A DNA stretch of 64,000 nt from assembly GCA_016795105.1 (NCBI GenBank), contig JAEUIH010000015.1:1-64000 (forward strand), written 5' to 3'. Below are positions 1 through 13,293 of this stretch, piece by piece. The translations under genes and the position numbers were made by a program. The notes beneath the pieces are model-generated. The model worked only from the letters and a program-made list of their open reading frames with translations, ran no database searches and was not told the origin of the DNA. Every line of letters starts with the position of its first letter. The first letter of the stretch is position 1. Origin of the DNA: Planctomyces sp. Its GTDB lineage: Bacteria > Planctomycetota > Planctomycetia > Planctomycetales > Planctomycetaceae.

Positions 1-428
1 GCCGCGGCAGTCGCCAGCGGCGGCACGGAAGATTCCTTCTTCGCGTAGCCAGCGATCTCGTTGGTGATGTCGCCGGTATCCTGACGCTTGCGACATTTGA
101 CCGTGATCATCAGCGGGAGGTTGTGCAGTTCGACCGAGTCACCGGGTGCCGTCACTCCGACGGCCCGGCAGATCGCCGACAGTTCCGCACGAGCAATTTG
201 AACGGCCGTGGCGTTCGGATTGTCGAGGTTCAGCCGAGCCCAGAGGATGCGGCCTTTGTAGGTTCCCTCCTGAATCTGAAAGGTCAGCTGCAGGTAGTGT
301 CCCGTGCCGGCCTTCGTCGGTTTCTGTTCGGATTCGGTGATCACTGCCAGGTACTTGCCGGCAGGAATCGGATCGAACTTGGCGGCGGGTTCCACCTGGT
401 TGGCGTCAAAGCCATTGAGATTGGCCAT
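1..428 (-). CDS. DUF669 family phage-type protein (3' end outside window)
   Basis: The frame opens with ATG at 428 and stays open to the left edge, giving 142 residues that begin MANLNGFDANQVEP. It contains the segment FDPIPAGKYLAVI, followed by a GTGHYLQLTFQI and GRILWARLNLDNPN core, which matches DUF669 as found in phages and integrative elements. DUF669 proteins are usually encoded beside a RecA-like ATPase and are thought to help DNA recombination or single-strand binding; that role is inferred from family context. The start is only 3 nt beyond the stop of the upstream ATPase gene, so the two are surely co-transcribed. The C-terminus is missing from the window. Confidence 0.8.
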   Translation of the reverse strand, partial: MANLNGFDANQVEPAAKFDPIPAGKYLAVITESEQKPTKAGTGHYLQLTFQIQEGTYKGRILWARLNLDNPNATAVQIARAELSAICRAVGVTAPGDSVELHNLPLMITVKCRKRQDTGDITNEIAGYAKKESSVPPLATAA

Positions 429-431
429 GGA

Positions 432-1211
432 TCAGTTCTCCACATTCGTTTGAGCTGGGTTGGTAAAGGCCGCCATGAAGGCCGGCCACGACAGAGGAAG
501 TTGTTCAGGCAGAGAAAAACGGTTCTTGGCCACACAGGACGGGCCACCGATCGTACGGAGCACGCGTTCGCCACCGTCTTTGCCGATGCCAAAGGCGACG
601 CCGCGTTTGCGATTGAATCCGGCGTCTTCGGTTTGCACACGGATTTTGCGAGTCGCAAACATCACGGCGTCAGCCCATTCACACACGAGGCTGCACGCAT
701 GCTTGTGCAGCCGTGGCGAATAACGGTCATAGGCTGTGGCTTCGGGGTCTTCGAACTTCTCGATCCGGGCATGGGCAATGCACAGCACCACCATGCCGCG
801 TTCCACTCGCAGGCGATTCAAGAGTCCCAGCAGATGACGCCAGTGCGACAGTGCGTGCGTGTAGCCTTTGGCATAACCGCCATCGACCTTTTCGATGCTG
901 GTGACGTTGTACTGACGGCAGAGGTCATCCCAGATCAGTCGCTCCAGCCAGTCGAGCGAATCGATGACGACGGTCTGGTAGTCATGCGGCTCGGAGAGCA
1001 GCGTGTTCAGATATCCGACGACGTCATCGAACGACGTAGCGAGCGGAAACTTGTCGCAGTCAATCTCCGCCAGGCCGTCTTCGGTCTGAATGAAGACGGG
1101 TGATGGGCATTGCGAACCGAAAGTGGACTTGCCGATGCCTTCGGTACCGTAGAGCACGAGTCGAGGAGGAAACGGCTGTTTGCCGCGTTGAATGGATTTG
1201 AGAAGTGTCAT
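432..1211 (-). CDS. Phage-type AAA ATPase (AAA_24-like nucleotide-binding protein)
   Basis: This 259-residue protein starts MTLLKSIQRGKQPFPPRLVLYG. A Walker A motif, GTEGIGKST, lies near residue 25, and hydrophobic strands ending VVIDSLDWLE and MVVLCIAHA fit Walker B and sensor positions of the RecA-like fold. It resembles the phage nucleotide-binding AAA_24 family, whose members are recombination mediators encoded next to DUF669. An upstream in-frame extension to 1493 exists, but the ATG at 1211 is preferred because it follows a purine-rich GAAAGGATCGATCCTG stretch and gives the normal family N-terminus. It lies 3 nt upstream of the DUF669 gene and about 100 nt downstream of the sigma-like gene. 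Helicase-loader or DNA-repair activity is possible; the exact role is unknown. Confidence 0.75.
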   Translation of the reverse strand: MTLLKSIQRGKQPFPPRLVLYGTEGIGKSTFGSQCPSPVFIQTEDGLAEIDCDKFPLATSFDDVVGYLNTLLSEPHDYQTVVIDSLDWLERLIWDDLCRQYNVTSIEKVDGGYAKGYTHALSHWRHLLGLLNRLRVERGMVVLCIAHARIEKFEDPEATAYDRYSPRLHKHACSLVCEWADAVMFATRKIRVQTEDAGFNRKRGVAFGIGKDGGERVLRTIGGPSCVAKNRFSLPEQLPLSWPAFMAAFTNPAQTNVEN

Positions 1212-1312: not shown

Positions 1313-1888
1313 CTATTCTTCGAAGCCAGCATTCGTGAAATGAGCCCGGACATCTTCCACGGCGCGACGCAGCTGTCGGCGAGAAATGCCCAGCTTGCGG
1401 GAGGCAGCAGCGGCCGGTAAGACCATGAGACTGCGACAGATCGCCTGCAGCTCCGATGGCAGCTGGTTCATGACAAACTGGATTGCCTGGCAATCTTCAG
1501 AGTGTCGCAGACGAGCCTCATGAGATTCCGTATAGCGACGTTGGTCGCCGTCTTCGGTCATCTCAGCAGCAAACGCATCGCCGGGTGGTTCGGTGTTCTG
1601 GCCTGGTCGGCGGGCATGCTGAACTGGCTGCCGTTTCTCACGACGACGTTCTCGGATCAGCATGAACACTTTCGTGCTGAGAACGCATTCGACGAATGTG
1701 TCGATCGATGCTCGCTGCGGATCGAACTTAGCGATCTGTGCGAAGAGAGCGACCCACAATTCCTGCTCAAGGTCTGGCTGTTCCTGGCGTTTGAATCCCG
1801 GACAGCAGGACAGTCGGCAGGCTTTGCTGCGAACGGCGGCACGTGCGTATTTGGAGAGAAACGCCTCTGGTGCAAGGGACGCTTGCAT
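1313..1888 (-). CDS. Small sigma-70-like transcription factor of the element
   Basis: This protein has 191 residues and ATG at 1888. The N-terminal half (about residues 38-90) reads like sigma region 2: an acidic DLEQELWVALFAQIAKFDP helix, then a segment ending in the basic stretch RERRREKRQ. The C-terminal 40 residues contain SRKLGISRRQLRRAVEDVR, a helix-turn-helix comparable to region 4. The linker is long and charged. The protein would direct host RNA polymerase to element promoters, or act as a phage-like late regulator; this is inference, because sequence similarity to true sigma factors is weak. It sits just upstream of the ATPase and DUF669 genes. Confidence 0.55.
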   Translation of the reverse strand: MQASLAPEAFLSKYARAAVRSKACRLSCCPGFKRQEQPDLEQELWVALFAQIAKFDPQRASIDTFVECVLSTKVFMLIRERRREKRQPVQHARRPGQNTEPPGDAFAAEMTEDGDQRRYTESHEARLRHSEDCQAIQFVMNQLPSELQAICRSLMVLPAAAASRKLGISRRQLRRAVEDVRAHFTNAGFEE

Positions 1889-2093
1889 TCATGATTCTGA
1901 GGCCGGAAGCAGACACCTTCGAAAGCCGCCAGAACTGGCGGAATGCGTCGTGCGATGGTTCCCTTCCCCATCAACAGAATCACAACGCGACTGACCCTCG
2001 GGTGATGGCCTCGGCGGCCTTCAGACGGCAGCCCCGGTGTCGCGTTTTGGGACGCCGTCGCGGCCGAAAATTCAGCCGCGATGGCGATGTAAC

Positions 2094-3071
2094 TTATTGC
2101 CAGTCAACGGTATCGGTTGAGTCGGAAATTATTTTCCGGTTGTCGCAGCGCTGCGACGCGACAGTGCGCCGCACTGAACAACTGTTGTGGTTGACGGGAG
2201 CCTTGATTTCGACACCACTGCGTTTCAGTGCTCGGTAGACCTTGTCCTTTGAAATCTCAGACTTTGTTTGGATGGACAGAGCTTCCGCCGCCAGCCGTAC
2301 AGACCCGTGCTGAAAATACGCAGCCACCATCGCTTCGTCTGTCAGCATCGAAGCAATCTCCTCCTTGACTTGTCGACGGATTCTCTTCGAAGAAACGCGT
2401 CCGGTCTCCGCTGGCATGGACTCGCAGACCATGTCATCCTGATCTCGCACCGCTTCCAGAAGCTGCATCGCGTCGATGCTGAATTTTCCGTCGCACCATT
2501 GCGACACGTGCGACAGTAAGACAAACGCCGGCGAACGAGTTTTCCAAAGCGGATCCGGAAGAACTCGACCATAGGTCAGCACGATCGCCTGTCGCGACGA
2601 CTTCAATGCCAACTTCAGATCGGTTCTGGAAAGCGACGGGCTGTCGCGCAACAGCCAGACTTCCCGTGTCCTGTTTTGCCACGGAGCTCGGCCCAGTCGC
2701 CACAACTTCTGTGGAATCTCGACGCTTAGTGGTCCCGAGAGCGACAGCGTGCCGGCGATCGTTCTCGCAATCGCCTCCAGATCAAATTGCCACTGTTGCA
2801 ATTCGTCTGGTCGCAGCTGCACTCGTCCGCTTTCCGGGCACGGGATAAACCATTTCGGCGCGACGCCGGGGTACTCGCGCAGGATCGGTTCCTCATCGTG
2901 ATCGAGACAATCCGGACAGACCACATATTTCAGTGGAGACGTTTCTCGGAGCCACGATTCCTTCAGGATTGCGAGCGTGTCTCGGTCAATCCAATCCTCA
3001 AAACTGCTACTGGCAAATCCGCCGCAGTACCTGTCCAGCATCAACCAAAGTGTTCGCAACCAATCATGCAT
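2094..3071 (-). CDS. Unknown element cargo protein B with Cys motifs and C-terminal HTH
   Basis: I do not recognise this family. The ATG at 3071 gives about 325 residues beginning MHDWLRTLWLMLDRYCGG. An in-frame frame extends 13 codons further upstream, but ATG 3071 overlaps the preceding stop by 8 nt, a usual coupling arrangement. Two cysteine-containing stretches near residues 50-80 (CPDCLDHDEEP and FIPCPESGR) could form a small metal site. The C-terminal third has a charged region and a helix-turn-helix-like segment (VRLAAEALSIQTKSEISKDKV), followed by a basic tail. The partner is the gene immediately upstream (protein A). Together they occupy the slot between the integration and replication-like genes where elements carry cargo. 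Function unknown; a defence or element-maintenance role is speculation. Confidence 0.6.
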   Translation of the reverse strand: MHDWLRTLWLMLDRYCGGFASSSFEDWIDRDTLAILKESWLRETSPLKYVVCPDCLDHDEEPILREYPGVAPKWFIPCPESGRVQLRPDELQQWQFDLEAIARTIAGTLSLSGPLSVEIPQKLWRLGRAPWQNRTREVWLLRDSPSLSRTDLKLALKSSRQAIVLTYGRVLPDPLWKTRSPAFVLLSHVSQWCDGKFSIDAMQLLEAVRDQDDMVCESMPAETGRVSSKRIRRQVKEEIASMLTDEAMVAAYFQHGSVRLAAEALSIQTKSEISKDKVYRALKRSGVEIKAPVNHNSCSVRRTVASQRCDNRKIISDSTDTVDWQ

Positions 3072-4245
3072 TGCAGATCCCCCACATCCGTAGACAGCGT
3101 TCACCGACAACTCTCAGATCATCGGCCTTTTCCTTGAGATTACAGGTATTTGGAGCGTGGACGCTGAAGGTCAGCGGACTGACTCGCAGTCGTCCCAGCG
3201 GCCGTACCATCAAATTGAATCCGACGGACAGAACTCTGAGCCCTTTGGGTTCGAAGGCGCGTTCGGCCAGTCTCTCCCTCAACTGTTGTTCCGCGGCATT
3301 GAGGTCCGTTCCCTGAGCGAATCCGATCTCCTCATACCGCACATTTTTCACGCATCGCGGTGCGAACCGGATATGAGTGAGTCGCACACTGGAGACGCGG
3401 TCTTCCGACGCAGTTGGCAGCTGAAATCCCTCTGTCAGGAGATGATCCAGCCGATACGCCGGCGTCTCAGCAAACGAAGGATTGGCTGGCTTTACGAGAA
3501 CCGCTCGACAAAACGAGTCCTTCAGTTGCTCGTGGATCACTCGACCTCCTCGGGCAGCGACTTCCAGCGTCCCATGATGACGATCGAGTGAAAACACGTT
3601 CGTGAAGGCACAGTGCCCTGATAGCGGAGACAGCTGGCCGTTTTCGCGAAACAGCATCAGCTGGTCCGGCCAGTTATCGAGGTAGGCGCAGAAATAATCC
3701 ACACCCGATTCCCGCTGATGGTGCTCGATATGGCAGTGACGACCCCGTAGCTGGGCCGAATAAACCTGCCGCAACTCGTCCTGCAGGGCTTCAATGCGCT
3801 GGCCGTCAATTTGCAGATCATCCGGCACATCGACATAGGATCGCTTCCAGAAGCGGCCCGACAGTGCTGCTTCAGCGACGGCCAGGAACTCAGCCTGTTC
3901 GAATGCATCCGGCAGATTGAGCCAGGCCCAGACGATCTGGTCGTTCCGATGCTCAAAGCGATCAAATTCACCGATGCGATGTGGATGTCGCTCCCGGATC
4001 GTTTCCATCAGCGCTGTCATGCCGAATTCCTGCGACAGCGTGAAGATCTTCTGCAGAACAATCTGCATGCGAGCACGCTCCTCATCAGGGATTGATTGCC
4101 AGGCCTCATATAGAGGCCCGGAGTTTCTGCGATGGACGCTTGCCATCTGTGACGGTGGCGTCCCTTTGTGGCGTGCGATGAACTCACGCAGGAGATTCAT
4201 GGAAAAAGAGCGGAGAACACGAAGTGGGTCAAAAGTCTGAGCCAT
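3064..4245 (-). CDS. Unknown element cargo protein A
   Basis: I do not recognise this 393-residue protein. The start at 4245 (MAQTFDPLRVLRSFSMNLL) is preferred over an in-frame extension to 4305, because the longer N-terminus (MRVSPEWRPFSV...) is rich in codons unlike the rest. The sequence looks soluble: no signal peptide or membrane helix. It is mixed alpha/beta, with many Glu, Arg and His residues and a conserved-looking CRAVLVKPANPSFAETPAYRLDHLL block near residue 250. Its stop overlaps the start of protein B by 8 nt, so the two are very likely translated together and may form a complex. A 554-nt gene-free stretch with a palindromic promoter-like site precedes it. Confidence 0.6.
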   Translation of the reverse strand: MAQTFDPLRVLRSFSMNLLREFIARHKGTPPSQMASVHRRNSGPLYEAWQSIPDEERARMQIVLQKIFTLSQEFGMTALMETIRERHPHRIGEFDRFEHRNDQIVWAWLNLPDAFEQAEFLAVAEAALSGRFWKRSYVDVPDDLQIDGQRIEALQDELRQVYSAQLRGRHCHIEHHQRESGVDYFCAYLDNWPDQLMLFRENGQLSPLSGHCAFTNVFSLDRHHGTLEVAARGGRVIHEQLKDSFCRAVLVKPANPSFAETPAYRLDHLLTEGFQLPTASEDRVSSVRLTHIRFAPRCVKNVRYEEIGFAQGTDLNAAEQQLRERLAERAFEPKGLRVLSVGFNLMVRPLGRLRVSPLTFSVHAPNTCNLKEKADDLRVVGERCLRMWGICNA

Positions 4246-4799
4246 AAGAATAGTCGTTCCCAATAGACGTACGGAGAACGGCCTCCATTCCGGTGAGACG
4301 CGCAAAGCCAGCGCGCACGGGGAGCATCAAGAAGAGAAAGAGTGAGAGCGCAGCCGCAAACCAGCGAGCGGCGCGGGCGTCAGCATTAGTAGGCTGGTGG
4401 CGGGAACTCAACGGCAACGAAGCGGAGTTCGCGGTCCTGAGCAATGAAGGACCAGCCAGACCATGTGCCCCAGGCAAGTTGGAAAAAACAGGCCTGTGTC
4501 AGGCTTCTCAATGTCCGACTGTGAAGCATCGACGATCAATCCCGGAATCGCTGCAAACATCCTGCAGCTGTGCCATTTCTGACGGTTGAGTGAGACTGCG
4601 AATGTATCGTGTTGACAGGCTGTGTCAACACATTCGTCACGTTATCCGGCAGCGGGATCTGCCCACTTGAACGCAACTCGTTGCAGCCCAACGCTGTTTT
4701 GATCTCAACATTTTTCTGAACGCAGTTTTGGCCACAATCGGGGTCGAGGAAGTGTCGAAATTCGGGGGGAACTCCAGACGAGAGATTCAATAACCGTTC
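4246..4799. other. Gene-free stretch inside the integrative element
   Basis: No credible gene was found here. The short open frames have compositions unlike their neighbours and overlap each other on both strands. The only notable structure is the inverted repeat at 4609-4631. The stretch separates the recombinase operon from the cargo pair, so it probably carries the promoter of the latter. Confidence 0.5.
4609..4631 (-). promoter_or_regulatory. Palindromic operator/promoter candidate for the cargo gene pair
   Basis: A perfect 9-bp inverted repeat, GTGTTGACA / TGTCAACAC, encloses the loop GGCTG. Outer bases GAATG and CATTC extend the dyad after a gap. Each arm contains TTGACA, the ideal -35 hexamer. 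On the minus strand, TTGACA is followed 16 nt later by TACATT, an acceptable -10. This would place a promoter reading toward the cargo pair, with the operator inside its spacer. The 5' leader would be about 350 nt, which weakens the assignment. Confidence 0.35.
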
Positions 4800-5213
4800 T
4801 TAATTGTTGCAGGCTTTTTCCGTTGCTTCGATGATCGACTTCCACATCTCTCGCTGCTTCGCCCAACTGACTTCCGCGGTTATGGGGCGCAACATCTTTT
4901 CGTGAATCGAATCATCGCCCTTAATGGTTCTGGGAAGGAAAAGAATGGTCTCCTGAATGTCGGGGGCCAGATGGAGCAGGTTCAAGATTTGCGTCATTCG
5001 GGGCTGTGTGATCTGCATAGTGCGAGCGAGTGACGATTGGTCGGTGGCCTCCCCGTTTTGCAGCATCTTCTCGAACTGGAGGGCGAGTGCCATCAGGCGA
5101 GACACACGGGGAATTCGCCCGGGCTCAACAGAGGGCACGACTGCTGGCTCACGTCGGATCCGTTTATGACCAGTGGTCACTCGATGGAAGACAATGGGGC
5201 GTTCCAGACGCAT
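4800..5213 (-). CDS. Small helix-turn-helix protein coupled to recombinase
   Basis: This 137-residue soluble protein has a basic N-terminus and a central helix-turn-helix (about residues 55-90: SSLARTMQITQPRMTQILNLLHLAP), of the kind seen in ParB/KorB-like or excisionase-associated DNA-binding proteins. Its ATG overlaps the last base of the recombinase stop codon (TAATG), so it depends on translation of the recombinase. Genes of this type recur directly downstream of DUF2924/recombinase pairs in bacterial integrative elements. They may act as directionality factors or repressors, which is inferred from position. No enzymatic motif is present. Confidence 0.6.
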   Translation of the reverse strand: MRLERPIVFHRVTTGHKRIRREPAVVPSVEPGRIPRVSRLMALALQFEKMLQNGEATDQSSLARTMQITQPRMTQILNLLHLAPDIQETILFLPRTIKGDDSIHEKMLRPITAEVSWAKQREMWKSIIEATEKACNN

Positions 5214-6781
5214 TAAGGTTTCTCCTTTGCATGTCGTTCTGTGAGCGTGCCAATGGCCGTATCATGGAAGCAGATCGCCATCGTCCCGCGACCGGCATCA
5301 TATTCAACACGCTCAACAATCAGTGAAATCAACTTCGCTTGCTGTCTTGAGCTCAATGTCCGCCAGAGCTGATCGAAGTCGCCAAATGCGCGCGTGACAT
5401 CGGTCTCAGAAATATGTTCTGACTCAAGGTCCTCCAGCTGTTCGTCCAACTCCGCAAGGCGGACCCTGGTCTTTGCGATCTTCTCGTGCAGGTCGGCAAT
5501 CATTGTGGCGACGGCCGGGCTGGATGGCTCCATGGCGAAACGCCGCAACTCGCTTTCCTGAAAGATTCGGTCTCGACAGAACTGCTCTCGTTCGGCTGTC
5601 AGGATTTCTCGTTCCTCTGCGATACCCGCCGCAGTCTGCCGCAACACCTCCGCCTGCAGGCTGCGATCAAGGCCAATACTGCGAATCTGTTCAATGACCG
5701 CTTCCTCGATTTCTGCGGCCGGCAGAGTCGGTTGAGGGCACTCTTTATGCCCGGCGCTGTTGGCACGTCCGCATGTGTAGTACCGATAAAGCTTTTCTTT
5801 CCGCTGCGTGAATGTGTGAGTCATCATGCGATCGCAGGATTTGCATCGCAGGAGTCCTCGCAGCAAAGCACCATATTTGTTCCGGACATCTTTGCCTCCC
5901 GTGCGTCCATTCAATCGCAGGGTGGATTGCACCTGCAGGAAAACTGATTCATCGATAAGCGCCGGATGCTCTCCGGCGAATCGTTCGCCTTTGTGGACAA
6001 CCAACCCAATGTAAATCGGGTTGGTCAGGAGCGAATACAGTGCATTCTTGTCGAATCGTCTCCCGCCACGAGGCACGTCACGCTTGGTCGTCCAGCTCTT
6101 GTTGTTCATTCCCTTTTCGGCGAGTCGCTGCACCACTGGCAGCAACGAACCCAGTTCCAGATACCACTCGAAGATCTTCCGAACCTGTGCCGCTTCCTTC
6201 ACATTCACAACCAGCTTCGGACTGGGATTCGTCCGATCCACATCGTACCCCAGAACGGGAATCCCGCCGGCCCATTTTCCTTTGCGACGTTGCGCTGCCA
6301 GTTTGTCGCGAATGCGTTCTCCGATGATCTCTCGTTCGAACTGCGCGAAAGACAGGAGAATGTTGAGCGTCAGACGGCCCATTGAGTGCGTCGTGTTGAA
6401 TTGCTGGGTGACCGAGACGAACGACACATTGTGCTTCTCAAATGTCTCCATGACTCGGGCGAAGTCCATCAGCGATCGGCTGAGGCGATCCACCTTGTAG
6501 ACCACAACGCAGTCAATCTTTCCATCCCTGATGTCGGCCAGCATTCGCTGCAATCCGGGACGTTCCACATTGCCACCGGAGAATCCGCCGTCATCATAGA
6601 GCGTCGGAAGACACACCCAGCCTTCATGTCTCTGGCTGGCGATGTAGGCTTCGGCGGCCTCCCGTTGTGCATCGAGCGAGTTGAATTCCTGATCCAGCCC
6701 GTCTTCAGTCGATTTGCGGGTGTAGATCGCACAGCGGATCTTTGTTTCCGATGACTTCACCGGAGATTTTGCCCGGCCCAT
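5213..6781 (-). CDS. Large serine recombinase (site-specific integrase)
   Basis: This 522-residue protein starts at ATG 6781 (MGRAKSPVKSSETK), which overlaps the stop of DUF2924 by one base; an upstream extension to 6820 is not needed. The N-terminal resolvase domain has the catalytic serine in IYTRKST (Ser24), the SLDAQREAAEAYI helix, YDDGGFSGGN and the VYKVDRLSRSLMDF motif. The recombinase domain follows, with a zinc ribbon near residues 310-360 (CKSCDRMM ... YTCGRANSAGHKECP). A coiled-coil region (about 380-460) closes the protein, as in integrases of the phiC31/TndX class. It would catalyse integration and excision of the element by attP x attB recombination. All key residues are intact, so it is probably active. 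Confidence 0.93.
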   Translation of the reverse strand: MGRAKSPVKSSETKIRCAIYTRKSTEDGLDQEFNSLDAQREAAEAYIASQRHEGWVCLPTLYDDGGFSGGNVERPGLQRMLADIRDGKIDCVVVYKVDRLSRSLMDFARVMETFEKHNVSFVSVTQQFNTTHSMGRLTLNILLSFAQFEREIIGERIRDKLAAQRRKGKWAGGIPVLGYDVDRTNPSPKLVVNVKEAAQVRKIFEWYLELGSLLPVVQRLAEKGMNNKSWTTKRDVPRGGRRFDKNALYSLLTNPIYIGLVVHKGERFAGEHPALIDESVFLQVQSTLRLNGRTGGKDVRNKYGALLRGLLRCKSCDRMMTHTFTQRKEKLYRYYTCGRANSAGHKECPQPTLPAAEIEEAVIEQIRSIGLDRSLQAEVLRQTAAGIAEEREILTAEREQFCRDRIFQESELRRFAMEPSSPAVATMIADLHEKIAKTRVRLAELDEQLEDLESEHISETDVTRAFGDFDQLWRTLSSRQQAKLISLIVERVEYDAGRGTMAICFHDTAIGTLTERHAKEKP

Positions 6782-7269
6782 TACTTCGCCCTCAACCCGA
6801 AGAACCGGTACCCGTTGCAATGCGATCCCGTTATGACCTTGGCGACGGCCGAGAGAGACCTGTATCGCTGGCCCTCGTACTCGAAGCCATCTGATCGCAC
6901 CTCGACCACAATCCTCTTTCCCTTGTAATCGCGATAGATCGGCGTTCTGTTGGGCGGCAATCGTCGATCGACCGACGGCTCCGTCCGCTGTCGTTTCTCC
7001 GCTGGTTTGACGCTGACCGTCGGGGAACGCTGCGCTGGCATCAATCGAACATCAGCATCTGCTGCCAATTCCGTGGCACGCTGCCGGGCACGTTCACTCA
7101 GGCTGCCGCCCTTGAGCGATTGCAGTCGCCAGAGAATCTTGCGGATCAGCCAGACTCGGTTCCGCGACCGAGGAGCCTCGCCATAGACGCTCACAAACCG
7201 TTCGTGCAGCTTGCTCACCGGCAGTTGGTGCAGTGCTTCGGATTCAACATCGACCTCGTCCGCCATCAT
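6781..7269 (-). CDS. DUF2924 domain protein (recombinase partner)
   Basis: The 162 residues match DUF2924. There is an N-terminal helical part with LPVSKLHERFVSVYGEAPRSRNRVWLIRKILWRLQ (shown here in abbreviated sense: the LRxxY/F...P.S.nr.wLirkilWrlQ pattern). The C-terminal part is a small beta domain, YRDYKGKRIVVEVRSDGFEY, then YRSLSAVAKVITGSHCNGYRFFGL. The C-terminal domain resembles the RAMA/SWIB-type DNA-associated modules that read modified or specific DNA. DUF2924 genes almost always precede serine recombinases in mobile elements. The biochemical role is unknown; an accessory role in recombination is inferred. The stop overlaps the recombinase start by one base. Confidence 0.85.
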   Translation of the reverse strand: MMADEVDVESEALHQLPVSKLHERFVSVYGEAPRSRNRVWLIRKILWRLQSLKGGSLSERARQRATELAADADVRLMPAQRSPTVSVKPAEKRQRTEPSVDRRLPPNRTPIYRDYKGKRIVVEVRSDGFEYEGQRYRSLSAVAKVITGSHCNGYRFFGLRAK

Positions 7270-7656: not shown

Positions 7657-8778
7657 TCAGTGAGATGCTGTTCGCCCAGTGTGTGTAGTATGGACATAAG
7701 CTCCACACGAGTTACGAACAACAAGCGTTGGCGCGAGAAACGTTGTGCGCACTGGATGAGCGGCGTGAAGAATTCTTTCTTCCAGCGTTCGAAATGCGCA
7801 CCATGCCAATTCTCGGCATGGCTGGCGGACCGTTGTTAGTGTCACATTGGCTAGTGTTGCATGACGGACATCGTCAAAGCCGATCAGCCGCAGGTCTTCA
7901 GGTACGCGCACGTTCAGCTTCATGAGCGTTTGCTGCAGGCGAAATGCGGTAAAGTCGTTTGCACAGACAATGGCATCAACATCCTGGATCGCGTGTTTGA
8001 CGAAGGGAAGATGAGAGGCATCACCGTCCATACGAATTGGTATGCCACTGTGCAGCTGATATTGAAGCATGGCTTCACGAACTCCCGTCAGCCGAGCATC
8101 AACAGAGCTGGCTGAATCCCGATCAGACAACAGGCGCAGCCTTCTCATGCCGAGTCGCAGTAAGTGATCGGCTGCAAGGAATCCGGCCTGCACATTGTCA
8201 AGTGCAACAAGGTCATAGTCACTCCGCAATGGGAACGGCATGAAGTCGCGATCGATCAGTACCACAGCGATACCAGCCTGACGCAGCAGATCCAACAACT
8301 GCAAATTGACGTTGCGACTGTCGTCCAGATGTTCGAACGGCGCAAAGATGACGCCCCGGACTCCTCGCTGAATAAACTGCTCACAGGCTTCACGTGCCAA
8401 TGTTGCATCAAGATTGCGATCCAACATGGGATGCGGCGAACGTCCCCAGAGAACTCCGTATCCATGGAGCTTTGCGATCGCTCCCAATTCGCCACAAACA
8501 ACGTCAAGAACTTCTGTCGAGCCACGGCCGGGGACAAGCAAACCTATCAATTGACTGTTTTGCTGATGTTCGCCGCTACGAACATACGAACCAGAACCAG
8601 CCTTGCGTTCAATTAACCCTTCCGACTGAAGGTCGCGTAACGCTCTCGCGACAGTGGGTCTTGAGGCGTGGAATCTTTGCACGAGTTGTGATTCGCTGGG
8701 CAGTTTGCCGGACGGGGCGAATTTCCCCGTGGCAATCTCAATGCGCAGTTCCTGAGAGATCTGCTGATGTTTCTGCAT
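7657..8778 (-). CDS. AraR-like regulator: GntR HTH fused to LacI sugar-sensing domain
   Basis: This protein has 373 residues. The N-terminus (1-70) is a GntR winged helix: ELRIEIATGKFAPSGKLPSESQLVQRF, then SRPTVARALRDLQSEGLIERKAGSGSYV. The remainder is a periplasmic-binding-protein-like LacI sensor (LIGLLVPGRGSTE..., GVIFAPFEHL, VVLIDRDFMPFP, LVALDNVQAGFLAADHLL, DAIVCANDF, LRLIGFDD). The GntR/LacI chimera is the architecture of AraR, in which the sugar ligand releases DNA. It is divergent from a fructose/sucrose uptake and hydrolysis operon and almost certainly regulates it. The intergenic region holds a matching TGTA-N2-TACA palindrome. The inducer is inferred to be fructose or a small fructan; the fold alone does not show it. 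Confidence 0.85.
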   Translation of the reverse strand: MQKHQQISQELRIEIATGKFAPSGKLPSESQLVQRFHASRPTVARALRDLQSEGLIERKAGSGSYVRSGEHQQNSQLIGLLVPGRGSTEVLDVVCGELGAIAKLHGYGVLWGRSPHPMLDRNLDATLAREACEQFIQRGVRGVIFAPFEHLDDSRNVNLQLLDLLRQAGIAVVLIDRDFMPFPLRSDYDLVALDNVQAGFLAADHLLRLGMRRLRLLSDRDSASSVDARLTGVREAMLQYQLHSGIPIRMDGDASHLPFVKHAIQDVDAIVCANDFTAFRLQQTLMKLNVRVPEDLRLIGFDDVRHATLANVTLTTVRQPCRELAWCAFRTLEERILHAAHPVRTTFLAPTLVVRNSCGAYVHTTHTGRTASH

Positions 8779-8925
8779 AGACTCGAATCGGGAACGTTGC
8801 GAATTGCAAAAGGTGGCCGGATCTCTCCAGCGGTCATTTTGGGGACGGGCCTTGGGCCGCCTTCCAAGCTCCAGATGCCTAACAACAAGTGCATCAGAGC
8901 GACAGACATGTCATCACAAGCCAGT

Positions 8926-8955
8926 AACCTGTAACTACAGGATAGTTATCAGGTT
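8926..8955. promoter_or_regulatory. Candidate operator of the GntR/LacI regulator
   Basis: CCTGTAACTACAGG at 8928-8941 is a perfect 6+2+6 dyad with the core TGTA-N2-TACA, the spacing of the AraR consensus (TTGTACGTACAA type). A second, wider dyad, AACCTG (8926-8931) with CAGGTT (8950-8955), encloses it. It sits in the 291-nt divergent intergenic region, about 150 nt from the regulator start and 128 nt from the transporter start, so it could control both. Confidence 0.55.
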
Positions 8956-9069
8956 CGGGCCAGTTTTGCAACTCGACCGAATTCTGGATTCGTATGATCA
9001 CTAATCCACGAGGCTTCTCGTCCACCGCTGGAAGACGAACAACGTTCGACCAAGTCAGGAATCCTTTTC

Positions 9070-10395
9070 ATGAAATCGAAGCTGTATTTCTGGTCCATCG
9101 TCTCCGCCCTGGCAGGATTTCTATTTGGCTTTGATACGGTCGTCATTTCCGGTGCGGAGAAGACGATCCAGAGTCTCTGGGGATTGAGCAACGGTATGCA
9201 CGGACTGGCCATGAGCGCCGCGTTGTGGGGGACCGTGCTGGGTTCGGCGATCGGACAGTGGCCGACCGATCGATACGGCCGTCGTCCCACACTGATTCTG
9301 ATTGGCGTCCTGTACTTTGTGTCTGCAGTCTGGTCGGGGCTGGCGACCGATGTCTACTCATTTATCATCGCGAGATTCACAGGAGGCCTCGGCGTAGGCA
9401 TTTCCACGATCGCAGCTCCGTTGTTCATTTCGGAGATTTCGCCCGCAAAAATGCGAGGACGACTGACGGGGTTATTTCAGTTCAACATTGTTTTCGGCAT
9501 CCTGATGGCCTTCGCGTCGAATGCCATTCTGGACGGTGTCAGGAACGACTGGCGTTGGATGCTGGGAGTGGAGGCTATTCCGGCGTTCTTTTACACACTC
9601 TTGTGTTTCGTCATTCCTGAAAGCCCGCGCTGGTTGATTGCAAAGAAGGGCGACCGCGACATGGGGATGCGTGTGCTTGCCATGATCAGCGAAGATTCGT
9701 CGCCAGATAATTTGAATCGACTGGCCGATGAAATCTCAGATGCTGCAGCGACCTCGGCGACATCGCGAGGGTTTTGGTCGTCGAAGATGCGAGTTCCAAT
9801 CGTGCTCGCATTTCTAGTCGCGTTTTTCAATCAAATGTCCGGCATCAACGCCATCCTGTACTTTGCCCCGCGGATTTTTGAGTTGACTGGGCTGGGCGAG
9901 AAAGCAGCGTTGTTGCAGTCGATCGGCATCGGCGTAACAAATCTGATCTTTACATTTGTCGGGTTGTGGCTGATCGATCGCCTTGGTCGTCGAACTTTGT
10001 TGTACATCGGTTCGTTCGGATACATTTTGTCCCTTGGGTTATGCTCGTTCGCCTTCTTTAGCGAACGATACAGCATTGTCCCTGCCTGCGTTTTTGGATT
10101 CATTGCGGCTCATGCAGTTGGCCAGGGAGCTGTGATTTGGGTCTTGATTTCCGAGATTTTTCCAAATCAGTATCGGGCCTCAGGTCAGGCACTCGGCAGC
10201 TTCACACACTGGATTTTTGCGGCATTGCTGACAACGCTTTTTCCGACGATGGTCACCCTGTTTCCTCCAGGCTATGTCTTTCTGTTTTTCTGCGGGATGA
10301 TGGTTCTGCAGTTAATCTGGGTGATGTTTATGGTTCCGGAAACTAAGGGCGTGCCGCTTGAAGACATACAAAAGCAACTGGGAATCACGCCATGA
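9070..10395 (+). CDS. MFS sugar porter (fructose/sucrose type proton symporter)
   Basis: This 441-residue inner-membrane protein has 12 predicted helices. Sugar-porter signatures are all present: GFLFGFDTVVISGA in helix 1, DRYGRRP after helix 2, GVGISTIAAPLFISEISPAKMRGRL, PESPRWL near residue 195, DRLGRRT in the second half, and PETKG close to the C-terminus. A GGA-type site (AGGAA) precedes ATG 9070. The helix 7 segment QMSGINAILYF (Q-SG-N) lines the sugar site in this family. It is the first gene of a three-gene operon with a fructokinase and a GH32 enzyme, so fructose or sucrose is the likely substrate; proton coupling is the family norm. Confidence 0.9.
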   Translation: MKSKLYFWSIVSALAGFLFGFDTVVISGAEKTIQSLWGLSNGMHGLAMSAALWGTVLGSAIGQWPTDRYGRRPTLILIGVLYFVSAVWSGLATDVYSFIIARFTGGLGVGISTIAAPLFISEISPAKMRGRLTGLFQFNIVFGILMAFASNAILDGVRNDWRWMLGVEAIPAFFYTLLCFVIPESPRWLIAKKGDRDMGMRVLAMISEDSSPDNLNRLADEISDAAATSATSRGFWSSKMRVPIVLAFLVAFFNQMSGINAILYFAPRIFELTGLGEKAALLQSIGIGVTNLIFTFVGLWLIDRLGRRTLLYIGSFGYILSLGLCSFAFFSERYSIVPACVFGFIAAHAVGQGAVIWVLISEIFPNQYRASGQALGSFTHWIFAALLTTLFPTMVTLFPPGYVFLFFCGMMVLQLIWVMFMVPETKGVPLEDIQKQLGITP

Positions 10396-11282
10396 CCGGC
10401 CGTCATCAGATTGTTGGACTCGGAGAGGTCCTGTGGGACATCTTTCCTGCTGGCCCTCGATTCGGCGGCGCGCCGGCGAATTTCGTCTGCAGTGCGGCCG
10501 GAGTGGGTGGAAACTCGGTGCATGCGTCGATGGTCAGTGCAGTTGGACGGGATTCTCTTGGTGAAAAAGGGCTCGCGGAATTCCGAAGGCGATCTGTCGA
10601 TGCGACTCACGTCGCGCAACTGGATCTGCAGTCGGGGCAGGTGCTTGTACAGCTCGATGCTCTGGGTCAGGCAAGCTACCAGTTCCTTGAAGACACGGCG
10701 TGGGACAACGTCCGGTGGACGACCGATCTTCAAACACTGGCGGAAAAAGCTGATGCTGTCTGCTTTGGAACACTGGGACAAAGAAGCAATGTCTCGCGCG
10801 AAACAGTCCGGCAATTCATCCACTCGACGGCGGACGGATGTCTGCGAATTCTGGATATCAACCTCCGTCCGCCGTACTGGACCGACGAAGTGATTCTGGA
10901 ATCCCTGCCGTTGGCAAACGTATTGAAGCTGAACAGCGATGAATTGCCGATTGTGGCGTCATTACTTTCACTTCACGGCGATGAAGAGGAATTGATGTGC
11001 CAATTGCTTCATAAGTTCTCATTTCAAGTGGCCGCACTGACTCGGGGAGCGGCGGGCTCACTACTGCTCAGCAGGTCAGGTGAACGCAGCGAGTTGCCTG
11101 GTCAGGAAATCAGGGTGGTCGATACTGTTGGTGCTGGTGATGCATTCACGGCGGCTCTGACCGTCGGCCTATTGAAGAATAAGCCACTGGCCGAAGTTCA
11201 TTCCTGGGCAGATCGAATTGCAGCGTTTGTGTGTACTCAGGCCGGCGCAACGCCGGAATTTCCGGATGAGTTTCGTTGCTGA
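10392..11282 (+). CDS. PfkB-family carbohydrate kinase, probable fructokinase
   Basis: A 296-residue cytoplasmic kinase. The N-terminal PfkB region (VGLGEVLWDIFPAGPRFGGAPANF) gives a substrate-binding Gly-Gly. The C-terminal signature DTVGAGDAFTAAL carries the catalytic Asp250. It overlaps the transporter stop by four bases (ATGA). In this operon it would phosphorylate imported fructose to fructose-6-phosphate. The EVLWDxFP opening is typical of fructokinases rather than ribokinases, but it does not prove the substrate. Confidence 0.87.
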   Translation: MTGRHQIVGLGEVLWDIFPAGPRFGGAPANFVCSAAGVGGNSVHASMVSAVGRDSLGEKGLAEFRRRSVDATHVAQLDLQSGQVLVQLDALGQASYQFLEDTAWDNVRWTTDLQTLAEKADAVCFGTLGQRSNVSRETVRQFIHSTADGCLRILDINLRPPYWTDEVILESLPLANVLKLNSDELPIVASLLSLHGDEEELMCQLLHKFSFQVAALTRGAAGSLLLSRSGERSELPGQEIRVVDTVGAGDAFTAALTVGLLKNKPLAEVHSWADRIAAFVCTQAGATPEFPDEFRC

Positions 11283-11292
11283 AAGGCTGATC

Positions 11293-13293
11293 ATGGTTCG
11301 ATTCCTGTTTCTGCTGTTCGTCTTTTCCGGTTACCAGAACGCGGCTATTGCTGCGGATGACGTCGTTATCAATGATTTCGAAGCCGACACATTTGGCAAC
11401 TGGATCGTGGAAGGCGAAGCGTTCGGGCCGGGGCCTGTTCAGGGGGCGGTCGACGGTCAAATGCCGGTTAGCGGAGTGCTTGGCAAGGGAGTTGCGAACA
11501 GCTTTTCGAAGGGTGACCAGGCTGTCGGAATCATCACGTCACCGGAATTCGTGATTACTCATAATCACATCGCGTTCCTCATTGGCGGTGGAAAGATTCC
11601 GGATGCACTTGGCATCGAACTGCTGGCAGACGGTCAGCGAGTTCGATCCGAAACGGGACACGAGTCCGAAGGCATGATATGGGAATCGTGGGATGTCAGC
11701 GAACTGATCGGCCGCAAAGTGAAGTTGCGAATCTTCGACAGCGCGACCGGAGGATGGGGACATATTCTGGTCGATCAGATCATCCTGACCGACACTTCGC
11801 GGCACGTTATTAAGGTTGATCGACTTTCCTCGTACCGCAAATCCAAGGGCTACTATCAGGAACCGTTTCGACCGCAGTTTCACTTCACTCCGGAAATGAA
11901 CTGGATGAATGATCCAAACGGTCTGGTCTACTATGACGGTGAATATCACTTGTTTTATCAGCACAACCCTCATGCGAATGAATGGGGGCACATGAGCTGG
12001 GGCCACGCCGTCAGTGAGGACCTCGTGCACTGGAAGCATCTGCCGATTGCTCTGCACGATGAATATGGAGTGATGGCGTTCTCCGGCAGTGCCGTGGTGG
12101 ATTTCGAGAACACGAGCAGCTTTGGCGTGAATGGCAAACCGCCGATGGTCGCGATCTACACGGGCCACAGTGCCGGACTTCAGACGCAGGACATCGCATT
12201 CAGTAACGATCGAGGCCGCACCTGGACAAAGTATGAGCACAATCCTGTGCTGGATATCGGAGAAGCGGATTTTCGAGATCCCAAAGTCTTCTGGCACACT
12301 CTGTCAAAGCGATGGGTGATGGTCGTGACGTTAGCGGTCCAGAAGAAGTTGCAGTTCTACGGTTCTCCAAATCTGAAAGACTGGACACTACTGAGCGAGT
12401 TTGGACCGGCGGGAGTTCCCAACAAACCGAACTGGGAATGCCCGGATATTTTTGAACTGCCAATCGAGAATGAGCCCGGCGGGACTCGCTGGGTTCTGGA
12501 GGCCGACATGGGTGGCGGAGCGATCGCAGGGGGGTCCGGCGGTGAGTATTTCACGGGCGTTTTTGACGGCACCAGTTTTGTCGCCGACTCAAAGGAATCC
12601 CAGTGGGTCGACTTTGGAAGGGATTTCTATGCGCCCGTTTCCTGGTCGAACATACCAGCCAGCGATGGTCGAAGACTATGGATTGGCTGGATGAACAACT
12701 GGGAAACGGCATTAAACCCCACCAGCCCGTGGCGCAGTGCGATGTCGATTCCCCGAGAGCTCACACTGAGGCGAATCAGCGGCCAGCTGCGACTGTGCCA
12801 AAGACCAGTGCGTGAGTTGCAGTTGCTGCGGACGGATTCGATCAGGTTGAAGAACGTTGAGCTCAAAAGCGAAACACGTAACATCGGTCTTCGAGGTCAG
12901 CAGCTCGAGGTAATTGCTGTGTTTAATCCGGGCGACGCAAGGGAATTCGGTCTGCGAGTTCTCAAGGGAACAAATCAGGAAACGGTTGTGGGTTATGATG
13001 TGAAGTCAAAGAGTCTGTTTATTGACCGAATTCGATCCGGCAACGCGGATTTTCATCCAGCGTTTCCCGGTCGCCATCGGGGACCATTAATTCCGGATGA
13101 CAGAGGGCACATTCGCCTGCATCTGTTTGTTGATGCATCGTCCGTCGAAGTCTTCGGCAACGATGGGGAAACTGTGGTGACGGATCTGGTGTTCCCGGAC
13201 GTCGGCAGTGCTGGAGCAGAGGTCTATTCATTCGATGGCACATGTGACTTGGTGGAATGCGACGTTTACCGACTAAAATCAGCGGTGCGTTAA
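11293..13293 (+). CDS. Secreted GH32 beta-fructosidase (levanase/invertase) with N-terminal sandwich domain
   Basis: The start is taken as ATG 11293 (MVRFLFLLFVFSGYQ), which opens a clean signal peptide (cleavage near AIA-ADD). An open frame extends upstream into the kinase gene but lacks a signal there. Residues about 22-170 form a beta-rich domain (FEADTFGNWIVEGEAFG...) ahead of the catalytic part. The GH32 five-blade domain has the nucleophile Asp207 in NWMNDPNG, FRDP (Asp329) and the acid/base Glu382 in NWECPD. The C-terminal GH32 sandwich ends the protein. It should release fructose from sucrose, inulin or levan outside the cytoplasm, feeding the porter and kinase upstream. Exo or endo mode cannot be told from sequence. 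Confidence 0.93.
   Translation: MVRFLFLLFVFSGYQNAAIAADDVVINDFEADTFGNWIVEGEAFGPGPVQGAVDGQMPVSGVLGKGVANSFSKGDQAVGIITSPEFVITHNHIAFLIGGGKIPDALGIELLADGQRVRSETGHESEGMIWESWDVSELIGRKVKLRIFDSATGGWGHILVDQIILTDTSRHVIKVDRLSSYRKSKGYYQEPFRPQFHFTPEMNWMNDPNGLVYYDGEYHLFYQHNPHANEWGHMSWGHAVSEDLVHWKHLPIALHDEYGVMAFSGSAVVDFENTSSFGVNGKPPMVAIYTGHSAGLQTQDIAFSNDRGRTWTKYEHNPVLDIGEADFRDPKVFWHTLSKRWVMVVTLAVQKKLQFYGSPNLKDWTLLSEFGPAGVPNKPNWECPDIFELPIENEPGGTRWVLEADMGGGAIAGGSGGEYFTGVFDGTSFVADSKESQWVDFGRDFYAPVSWSNIPASDGRRLWIGWMNNWETALNPTSPWRSAMSIPRELTLRRISGQLRLCQRPVRELQLLRTDSIRLKNVELKSETRNIGLRGQQLEVIAVFNPGDAREFGLRVLKGTNQETVVGYDVKSKSLFIDRIRSGNADFHPAFPGRHRGPLIPDDRGHIRLHLFVDASSVEVFGNDGETVVTDLVFPDVGSAGAEVYSFDGTCDLVECDVYRLKSAVR

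What the first reader, a model, noticed from the sequence alone, without database searches (positions are those of the whole stretch)
2094..4245. Overlapping pair of unknown cargo genes in an integrative element
Two genes of unrecognised family overlap by 8 nt and sit between the recombinase block and the replication-like block, where integrative elements carry cargo such as defence systems. Protein B has paired Cys motifs and a helix-turn-helix. A dedicated palindromic promoter candidate precedes them.
Basis: inference. Interest (0 to 1): 0.5.

Follow-up and report, generated by a model that had tools for sequence, protein, structure and literature searches.

The report
Rex-like gene pair in planctomycete prophages
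Two unknown overlapping genes turn out to be a fixed part of the control region of virus-like mobile elements in planctomycete bacteria, and one of them is predicted to fold like proteins that wrap around DNA, so the pair may guard its host against other viruses or set the element's own switch.

Summary
In detail: A (3064-4245, 393 aa) and B (2094-3071, 325 aa) overlap by 8 nt and have no curated family. The reading as optional cargo is mostly wrong. A relatives occur in 44 of 397 genomes of the class; B follows A in 51 of 55 testable loci. Variable genes sit beside the pair instead. In 24 of 55 loci a phage-type repressor gene lies just upstream (XRE+ImmA 18, LexA-like 6), sometimes overlapping A; replication genes follow, and in two loci checked a GpA terminase. 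This is the lysogeny-control region of temperate-phage-like elements, where lambda carries cI-rexA-rexB. A's predicted fold best matches CENP-N, CENP-L and RdgC; published work ties lambda RexA to RdgC and Iml3/Chl4. B is soluble (three conserved Cys, variable HTH end), unlike membrane RexB. I propose a DNA clamp plus DNA reader that excludes other phages or tunes the switch. This rests on fold and gene order, without sequence support; function is untested. It works like Rex but is not filed as RexAB. A conserved 47-codon ORF and an operator-like palindromic promoter precede A.

The parts
3064..4245 (-). Protein A, 393 aa; helical N-terminal part plus beta-rich C-terminal part; predicted RdgC / CENP-L-N-like fold
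2094..3071 (-). Protein B, 325 aa, overlaps A by 8 nt; C52, C55, C78, W124, G127 invariant in 32 rows; variable C-terminal HTH; no transmembrane segment by hydropathy
4386..4529 (-). Small ORF S, 47 codons, upstream of A; conserved in L006 (98%), L007 (93%) and more distantly L027 (62%)
4609..4631 (-). Operator-like palindrome with 9-bp perfect arms, overlapping promoter-like TTGACA-16-TACATT (4628-4601)
2053..2086 (-). Strong hairpin just after the stop of B (-26.7 kcal/mol, z -4.05, 0 of 200 shuffles); may end or slow the S-A-B transcript (no T tract)
4800..5213 (-). Small HTH protein of the recombinase block (phrog_14161, E 2.8e-15)
5213..6781 (-). Large serine recombinase (Resolvase, Recombinase, Zn_ribbon_recom domains); ATG at 6781 inferred from the reading frame
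6781..7269 (-). DUF2924 protein, first gene of the recombinase block
1313..1888 (-). Sigma-70-like protein (TIGR02937 E 6.9e-9, below its curated cut-off)
432..1211 (-). Sak4-like / AAA_24 ssDNA-annealing ATPase (phrog_124); start inferred from the reading frame
1..430 (-). DUF669-like gene, runs off the contig end
   Evidence: profile; Pfam DUF669 shown for the relative in L012

Best explanation
A-B is a two-protein module of the lysogeny-control region of temperate-phage-like integrative elements in Planctomycetota, working in the manner of lambda rexA with a different partner. A is a DNA-binding clamp with the RdgC/RexA/CENP-L-N type of fold. B is a soluble, probably zinc-binding protein whose changing C-terminal HTH reads DNA (the element's own operators or the DNA of an intruder). 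Made from a repressor-linked or operator-controlled transcript while the element is dormant, A and B together either block replication of incoming phages or bias the element's own switch. Shown here: gene order, co-conservation, coupling to repressor genes, promoter-like palindrome, absence of transmembrane segments in B. Predicted only: fold of A, HTH of B. Inferred: dimer clamp, zinc binding, lysogenic expression, exclusion or switch control.
For: B directly follows A in 51 of 55 loci with at least 1.5 kb downstream (38 of 42 clusters at 80% identity); a repressor-type gene (XRE+ImmA 18, LexA/S24 6) lies just upstream on the same strand in 24 of 55 loci (17 of 41 clusters); LexA overlaps A by 4 nt in L060 and L061 and is 1-6 nt away in L065, L079, L080, L081 (domains of examples). 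In L079-L081 the sigma/Sak4/DUF669 operon runs away from LexA-A-B, so there the pair goes with the repressor, not with replication. Foldseek best hits of A in the PDB are CENP-N (6eqt_B E 1.4e-3, prob 1.00, then 7pkn, 7qoo, 7r5v), and RdgC is at ranks 17 and 20; VIA: CENP-N Z 7.9 (171 aa, 5.0 A), CENP-L Z 7.7 (151 aa, 5.8 A), Chl4 7.5 (163 aa, 5.7 A), RdgC 5.5 (182 aa, 6.2 A, over 130-393), Iml3/Chl4 entry 4je3 4.7. PMC11077077 reports lambda RexA as a structural relative of RdgC and of Iml3/Chl4, and rex genes beside cI; CarolAnn, Sejanus and Hafnia yong1 show repressor or HTH gene, RexA, partner. Phage nature: GpA terminase in L012 and L016, Prim-Pol, RusA and ParB-methylase in relatives.
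Against: The fold match is weak by the tool's own yardstick (best Z 7-8 is typical of models without a clear Foldseek match) and TM-scores are low (0.18-0.24 by query for the CENP-N rows). No sequence link to RexA or RdgC: 0 of 42 A rows hit Pfam, hhalign prob under 1%; but accepted RexA proteins do not link to each other or to RdgC either in the same test, so it is uninformative. The window copy itself has no repressor gene next to it, and 31 of 55 loci lack one. B is not RexB-like. No terminase match was found in the window's own genome (without a positive control).
Confidence: 0.42

Rival explanations
1. RdgC-like modulator of the element's own replication and recombination: A clamps DNA and restrains or loads the Sak4-type annealing protein encoded downstream, B targets it to the origin.
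For: A-B is usually followed on the same strand by sigma-like, Sak4/AAA_24, DUF669, RusA, helicase and primase genes; RdgC is among A's fold matches.
Against: In L079-L081 the replication operon is divergent while LexA-A-B stay together; six loci (L067, L069, L075-L078) and the Tenderia plasmid carry A-B without the Sak4 gene in view; a strong hairpin separates B from the next gene in the window.
Confidence: 0.22
2. Transcription switch: B (HTH) with A as co-factor is a second repressor or activator acting on the operon that begins with the sigma-like gene.
For: B's C-terminal HTH part differs between groups, as expected of a protein that tracks changing operators; the sigma-like gene is present in 42 of 55 loci; palindromic promoter before S-A-B.
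Against: Does not need a DNA-clamp fold in A or the conserved Cys of B; HTH matches are weak.
Confidence: 0.22
3. Ordinary accessory defence cargo picked up by these elements, unrelated to Rex.
For: Position between recombinase and replication blocks; on the Tenderia plasmid A-B is followed by Multi_ubiq, JAB-like and ThiF genes; Mrr and another gene lie next to A in L007.
Against: Fixed pairing and position across most of 44 clusters are unlike exchangeable cargo; no PADLOC hit.
Confidence: 0.1
4. Partition or centromere-binding system of an element that can live outside the chromosome.
For: Best fold matches are centromere proteins CENP-N/L; the pair occurs on one plasmid.
Against: No ParA-type ATPase gene was noticed beside the pair, though none was searched for; the centromere likeness is shared with RdgC and RexA, which have other roles (PMC11077077).
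Confidence: 0.04

Closest known systems
Lambda RexA-RexB and Sbash gp30/gp31, CarolAnn gp44/gp43, P. putida RexABpp (PMC11077077, PMC6426596, PMC6426606, PMC12894663)
   Same: Two adjacent genes of temperate phages, first one predicted to share the RdgC-type fold, often directly behind the phage repressor gene; A (393 aa) is near the size of Sbash gp30 (372 aa)
   Different: Second protein is soluble with conserved Cys and HTH instead of a four-helix membrane protein; A carries an extra helical N-terminal part; no detectable sequence similarity
RdgC (PF04381)
   Same: Fold match over A 130-393 (182-191 residues, Z 5.0-5.5, rmsd 6.2 A)
   Different: No sequence hit; A is phage-borne and paired with B; RdgC in 0 of 21 planctomycete genomes searched (E. 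coli control rang)
CENP-N/CENP-L, Chl4/Iml3 of the kinetochore
   Same: Best structural hits of A, including part of A's helical region in the CENP-N alignment (model 58-260)
   Different: Eukaryotic centromere proteins; likeness is at fold level only and below the tool's safe threshold
phrog_37634 (unknown function)
   Same: A and all five relatives scanned match it (E 9e-29 to 4e-13 for planctomycete proteins, 5e-83 for the Tenderia protein)
   Different: No function is given for that family
ImmR-ImmA control module of ICEBs1 (recalled, not fetched)
   Same: XRE repressor and/or M78 (ImmA/IrrE) protease directly upstream of A in 18 loci
   Different: Here the module is followed by A-B

Membership tests
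RexAB phage exclusion system | RexA sequence family (Pfam PF15969; DUF4747 PF15931) | tested here: inconclusive
   0 of 42 A rows hit Pfam at E 0.01; but the accepted members CarolAnn gp44 and Sbash gp30 also have no Pfam hit, and hhalign does not join them to lambda RexA
RexAB phage exclusion system | RdgC/RexA-type two-domain fold of the first protein | tested here: inconclusive
   CENP-N, CENP-L, Chl4 lead the list and RdgC is on it, but Z stays under 8
RexAB phage exclusion system | Membrane protein RexB with four transmembrane helices as partner | tested here: not met
   Maximum 19-residue hydropathy 0.97 for B against 2.39 for lambda RexB and 2.07 for CarolAnn gp43; B family 0.77-1.62
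RexAB phage exclusion system | Genes next to the phage repressor, in the lysogenic transcript | tested here: inconclusive
   Repressor-type gene upstream in 24 of 55 loci; not in the window copy; expression not testable
RexAB phage exclusion system | Blocks growth of other phages | not testable with these tools
   needs a plating assay
RdgC | PF04381 sequence match | tested here: not met
   0 of 42 A rows at E 0.01; the E 0.01 hit of B to RdgC is under its cut-off
CENP-N/CENP-L | CENP-N/L fold | tested here: inconclusive
   Foldseek E 1.4e-3, prob 1.00; VIA Z 7.9 over 171 aa, rmsd 5.0 A
Temperate phage / prophage | Integrase of the serine type | tested here: met
   Resolvase 2.3e-40, Recombinase 2.9e-16; phrog_95 integrase 3e-123
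Temperate phage / prophage | Virion genes (terminase) | tested here: inconclusive
   GpA endonuclease domain in relatives L012 and L016; the window's contig ends in DUF669 and its genome gave no match (no positive control)
Known anti-phage defence families (PADLOC-DB 2.0.0) | Profile match | tested here: not met
   0 families for A and B at E 1

The most novel reading that the evidence does not exclude
A widespread planctomycete family of soluble Rex-type systems in which a DNA clamp with the CENP-N/L-RdgC-RexA fold works with a DNA-reading protein instead of a membrane channel, so that exclusion or switch control acts on DNA rather than on the membrane; A would also be the prokaryotic protein whose helical-plus-saddle layout comes closest to kinetochore CENP-N.
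Probability: 0.25. Interest if true: 0.78.

Novelty: new variant of a known kind. Interest (0 to 1): 0.5.

Why it matters
Of Rex-like systems, one 2026 paper counts only five described (PMC12894663, passages read), all with a membrane partner. A family found in 44 of 397 genomes of one class and 17 of 294 drawn from the phylum, with a soluble partner, would widen that kind considerably and make the old question of what RexA does to DNA testable without the membrane channel. It also gives planctomycete temperate phages a recognisable control region.

Tried and rejected
Optional cargo: rejected because A-B stays in register while the neighbours vary. Housekeeping family: no hit. Sequence homology of A to RexA, RdgC or B: hhalign found none; the controls also failed (131, 133), so this neither supports nor refutes. 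B as an inactive PDDEXK nuclease: element order alpha-beta-beta-beta-alpha-beta in the model and weak rows for Can2 8bao (Z 5.5) and EndoMS (Z 3.9), but the invariant columns of A6 include no acidic residue; left open. B as RdgC: E 0.01 only. RexA itself (8twq) is not among the 50 rows shown. BFVD gave only unnamed phage proteins at the top (best E 4e-4). DnaX frameshift element at 4316-4380 plus strand (29 bits, gathering 35): treated as chance. A in phage records: no match, nor in viral contigs; plasmids: one. Greater divergence of B's C-terminal part was tested by mean identity: 0.257 for residues 1-200 against 0.220 for 205-290 over 484 pairs, a small difference, so 'HTH swapping' rests on the alignment by eye. 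Rows dropped: the Tenderia row was left out of A5/A6; in the 55-locus counts, loci with under 1.5 kb on the relevant side were left out (58 loci in all); L124 and L006 are the same element and fall in one cluster; the 40 regions fetched are those of the best-scoring places, not all of them.

Full report
What is there. On the minus strand of the first 7.3 kb of the contig (G000:C66) run DUF2924, a large serine recombinase, a small HTH protein, a 0.55-kb gap, A, B, a sigma-70-like protein, a Sak4/AAA_24 ATPase and a DUF669-like gene cut by the contig end. A and B overlap by 8 nt.

The transcription unit. In the gap lie a 23-bp palindrome with 9-bp arms (4609-4631) and, inside it, the only sigma-70-like site found in 1850-5250 (TTGACA-16-TACATT, 10 of 12). 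Such a palindrome appears in 9 of 500 shuffles. It is kept in L006. Codons that differ from L007 are 9 synonymous and 5 not, from L027 18 and 19, so coding is likely but not proven. Just after B's stop a strong hairpin (-26.7 kcal/mol, z -4.05) separates S-A-B from the sigma-like gene, though the tail has no T tract.

Relatives. A profile of seven A proteins finds matches in 44 of 397 genomes of the class; a larger profile finds 17 of 294 drawn from the phylum. Outside the phylum one was seen, on a Candidatus Tenderia electrophaga plasmid, where A and B are followed by Multi_ubiq, a weak JAB-like and a ThiF gene.

Gene order. I took 58 A-bearing loci (44 clusters at 80% identity) and labelled neighbours with profiles built from the window and its relatives. 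B follows A in 51 of 55 loci with enough sequence (exceptions with enough sequence: L086 with a broken A, L120, L121, L122). The sigma-like gene is present in 42 of 55 and the recombinase in 28 of 58, in three main arrangements: upstream on the same strand (as in the window), upstream on the opposite strand (e.g. L060, L071-L074), and downstream (L079-L081). Directly upstream of A a repressor-type gene is seen in 24 of 55 loci: XRE and/or ImmA/M78 in 18, LexA/S24 in 6 (domains of examples). LexA overlaps A by 4 nt in L060 and L061. In L079-L081 LexA-A-B-DUF2924-recombinase run one way and sigma-Sak4-DUF669-RusA-helicase-primase the other. This ties the pair to the repressor side. Further downstream are Prim-Pol, ParB-methylase and GpA terminase in L012, and GpA terminase in L016, so these elements are temperate phages or derived from them. 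For the window itself that step is inferred: its contig ends too early and a terminase search of its genome was empty.

What varies. Between the small HTH gene and A the window has only S, L006 an opposite-strand gene without Pfam hit, and L007 two opposite-strand genes, one an Mrr endonuclease. That slot, not A-B, looks like the place for cargo.

Structure. AlphaFold2 models have mean pLDDT 82.0 (A, pTM 0.58) and 81.7 (B, pTM 0.63). A's best PDB matches by Foldseek are human CENP-N chains (E 1.4e-3, prob 1.00), with E. coli RdgC at ranks 17 and 20. VIA places CENP-N (Z 7.9), CENP-L (7.7), Chl4 (7.5 and 7.4), RdgC (5.5, over 130-393) and the Iml3-Chl4 entry 4je3 (4.7) on the list. These are known relatives of each other: PMC4080450 (one passage read) cites Chl4/Iml3 likeness to RdgC, and PMC11077077 (abstract, introduction, sections 18 and 23, passages of section 19 and the discussion read) shows lambda RexA to be a structural relative of RdgC and Iml3/Chl4. 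The hits are therefore one coherent group, but Z under 8 is within the tool's stated background. B has no good match (best Z 5.5).

Sequence controls. A shows no profile similarity to RexA or RdgC. In the same test actinophage RexA does not link to lambda RexA, nor lambda RexA to RdgC. So the failure says little.

Mechanism. The place behind a phage repressor, the possible RdgC/RexA fold and the strict pairing suggest a Rex-type module: a DNA clamp (A) with a partner. In the Rex systems described in the papers read (PMC11077077; passages of PMC12894663 and PMC6426596) the partner is a membrane protein; here B is soluble by hydropathy, with invariant C52, C55 and C78 and a C-terminal HTH part that differs between groups. 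I propose that B recognises DNA and A clamps or blocks it, giving exclusion of other phages or control of the switch. The last step is inference. Because the membrane partner was tested and not met, I do not file the pair as RexAB; I say that it may work like it.

Novelty. Paper searches for RdgC with CENP-N, RdgC with Iml3 and Chl4, RdgC with phage and kinetochore, DUF2924 with recombinase and Planctomycetes, and DUF4747, RexA and prophage listed no report of this family among the titles and abstracts shown; the library holds only open-licence papers.

Noticed in passing
window 4386-4529 (-): Unlisted 47-codon ORF between the palindromic promoter and A, found in 4 of 170 genomes of the family.
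   Followed up: partly
L018 11809-16490 (Tenderia plasmid CP013100.1): A-B relatives directly followed by Multi_ubiq, JAB-like and ThiF genes, i.e. a ubiquitin-like conjugation operon; this B lacks the conserved cysteines.
   Followed up: no
L007 1941-3382; L006 8384-9529: Variable opposite-strand genes (Mrr endonuclease and others) in the slot between recombinase block and A.
   Followed up: partly
L067, L069, L075-L078: A with a longer B (about 480 aa) beside DUF3854 or primase genes and no recombinase in view: a second kind of element carrying the pair.
   Followed up: no
window 7657-13293: The element abuts a regulator, a sugar transporter, a PfkB-like kinase and a GH32-like gene (names by eye from the translations, no search), suggesting a fructan or sucrose operon next to the insertion.
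   Followed up: no
window 4316-4380 (+): Sub-threshold match to the DnaX frameshift element (29 bits, gathering 35), antisense to the leader of A.
   Followed up: no
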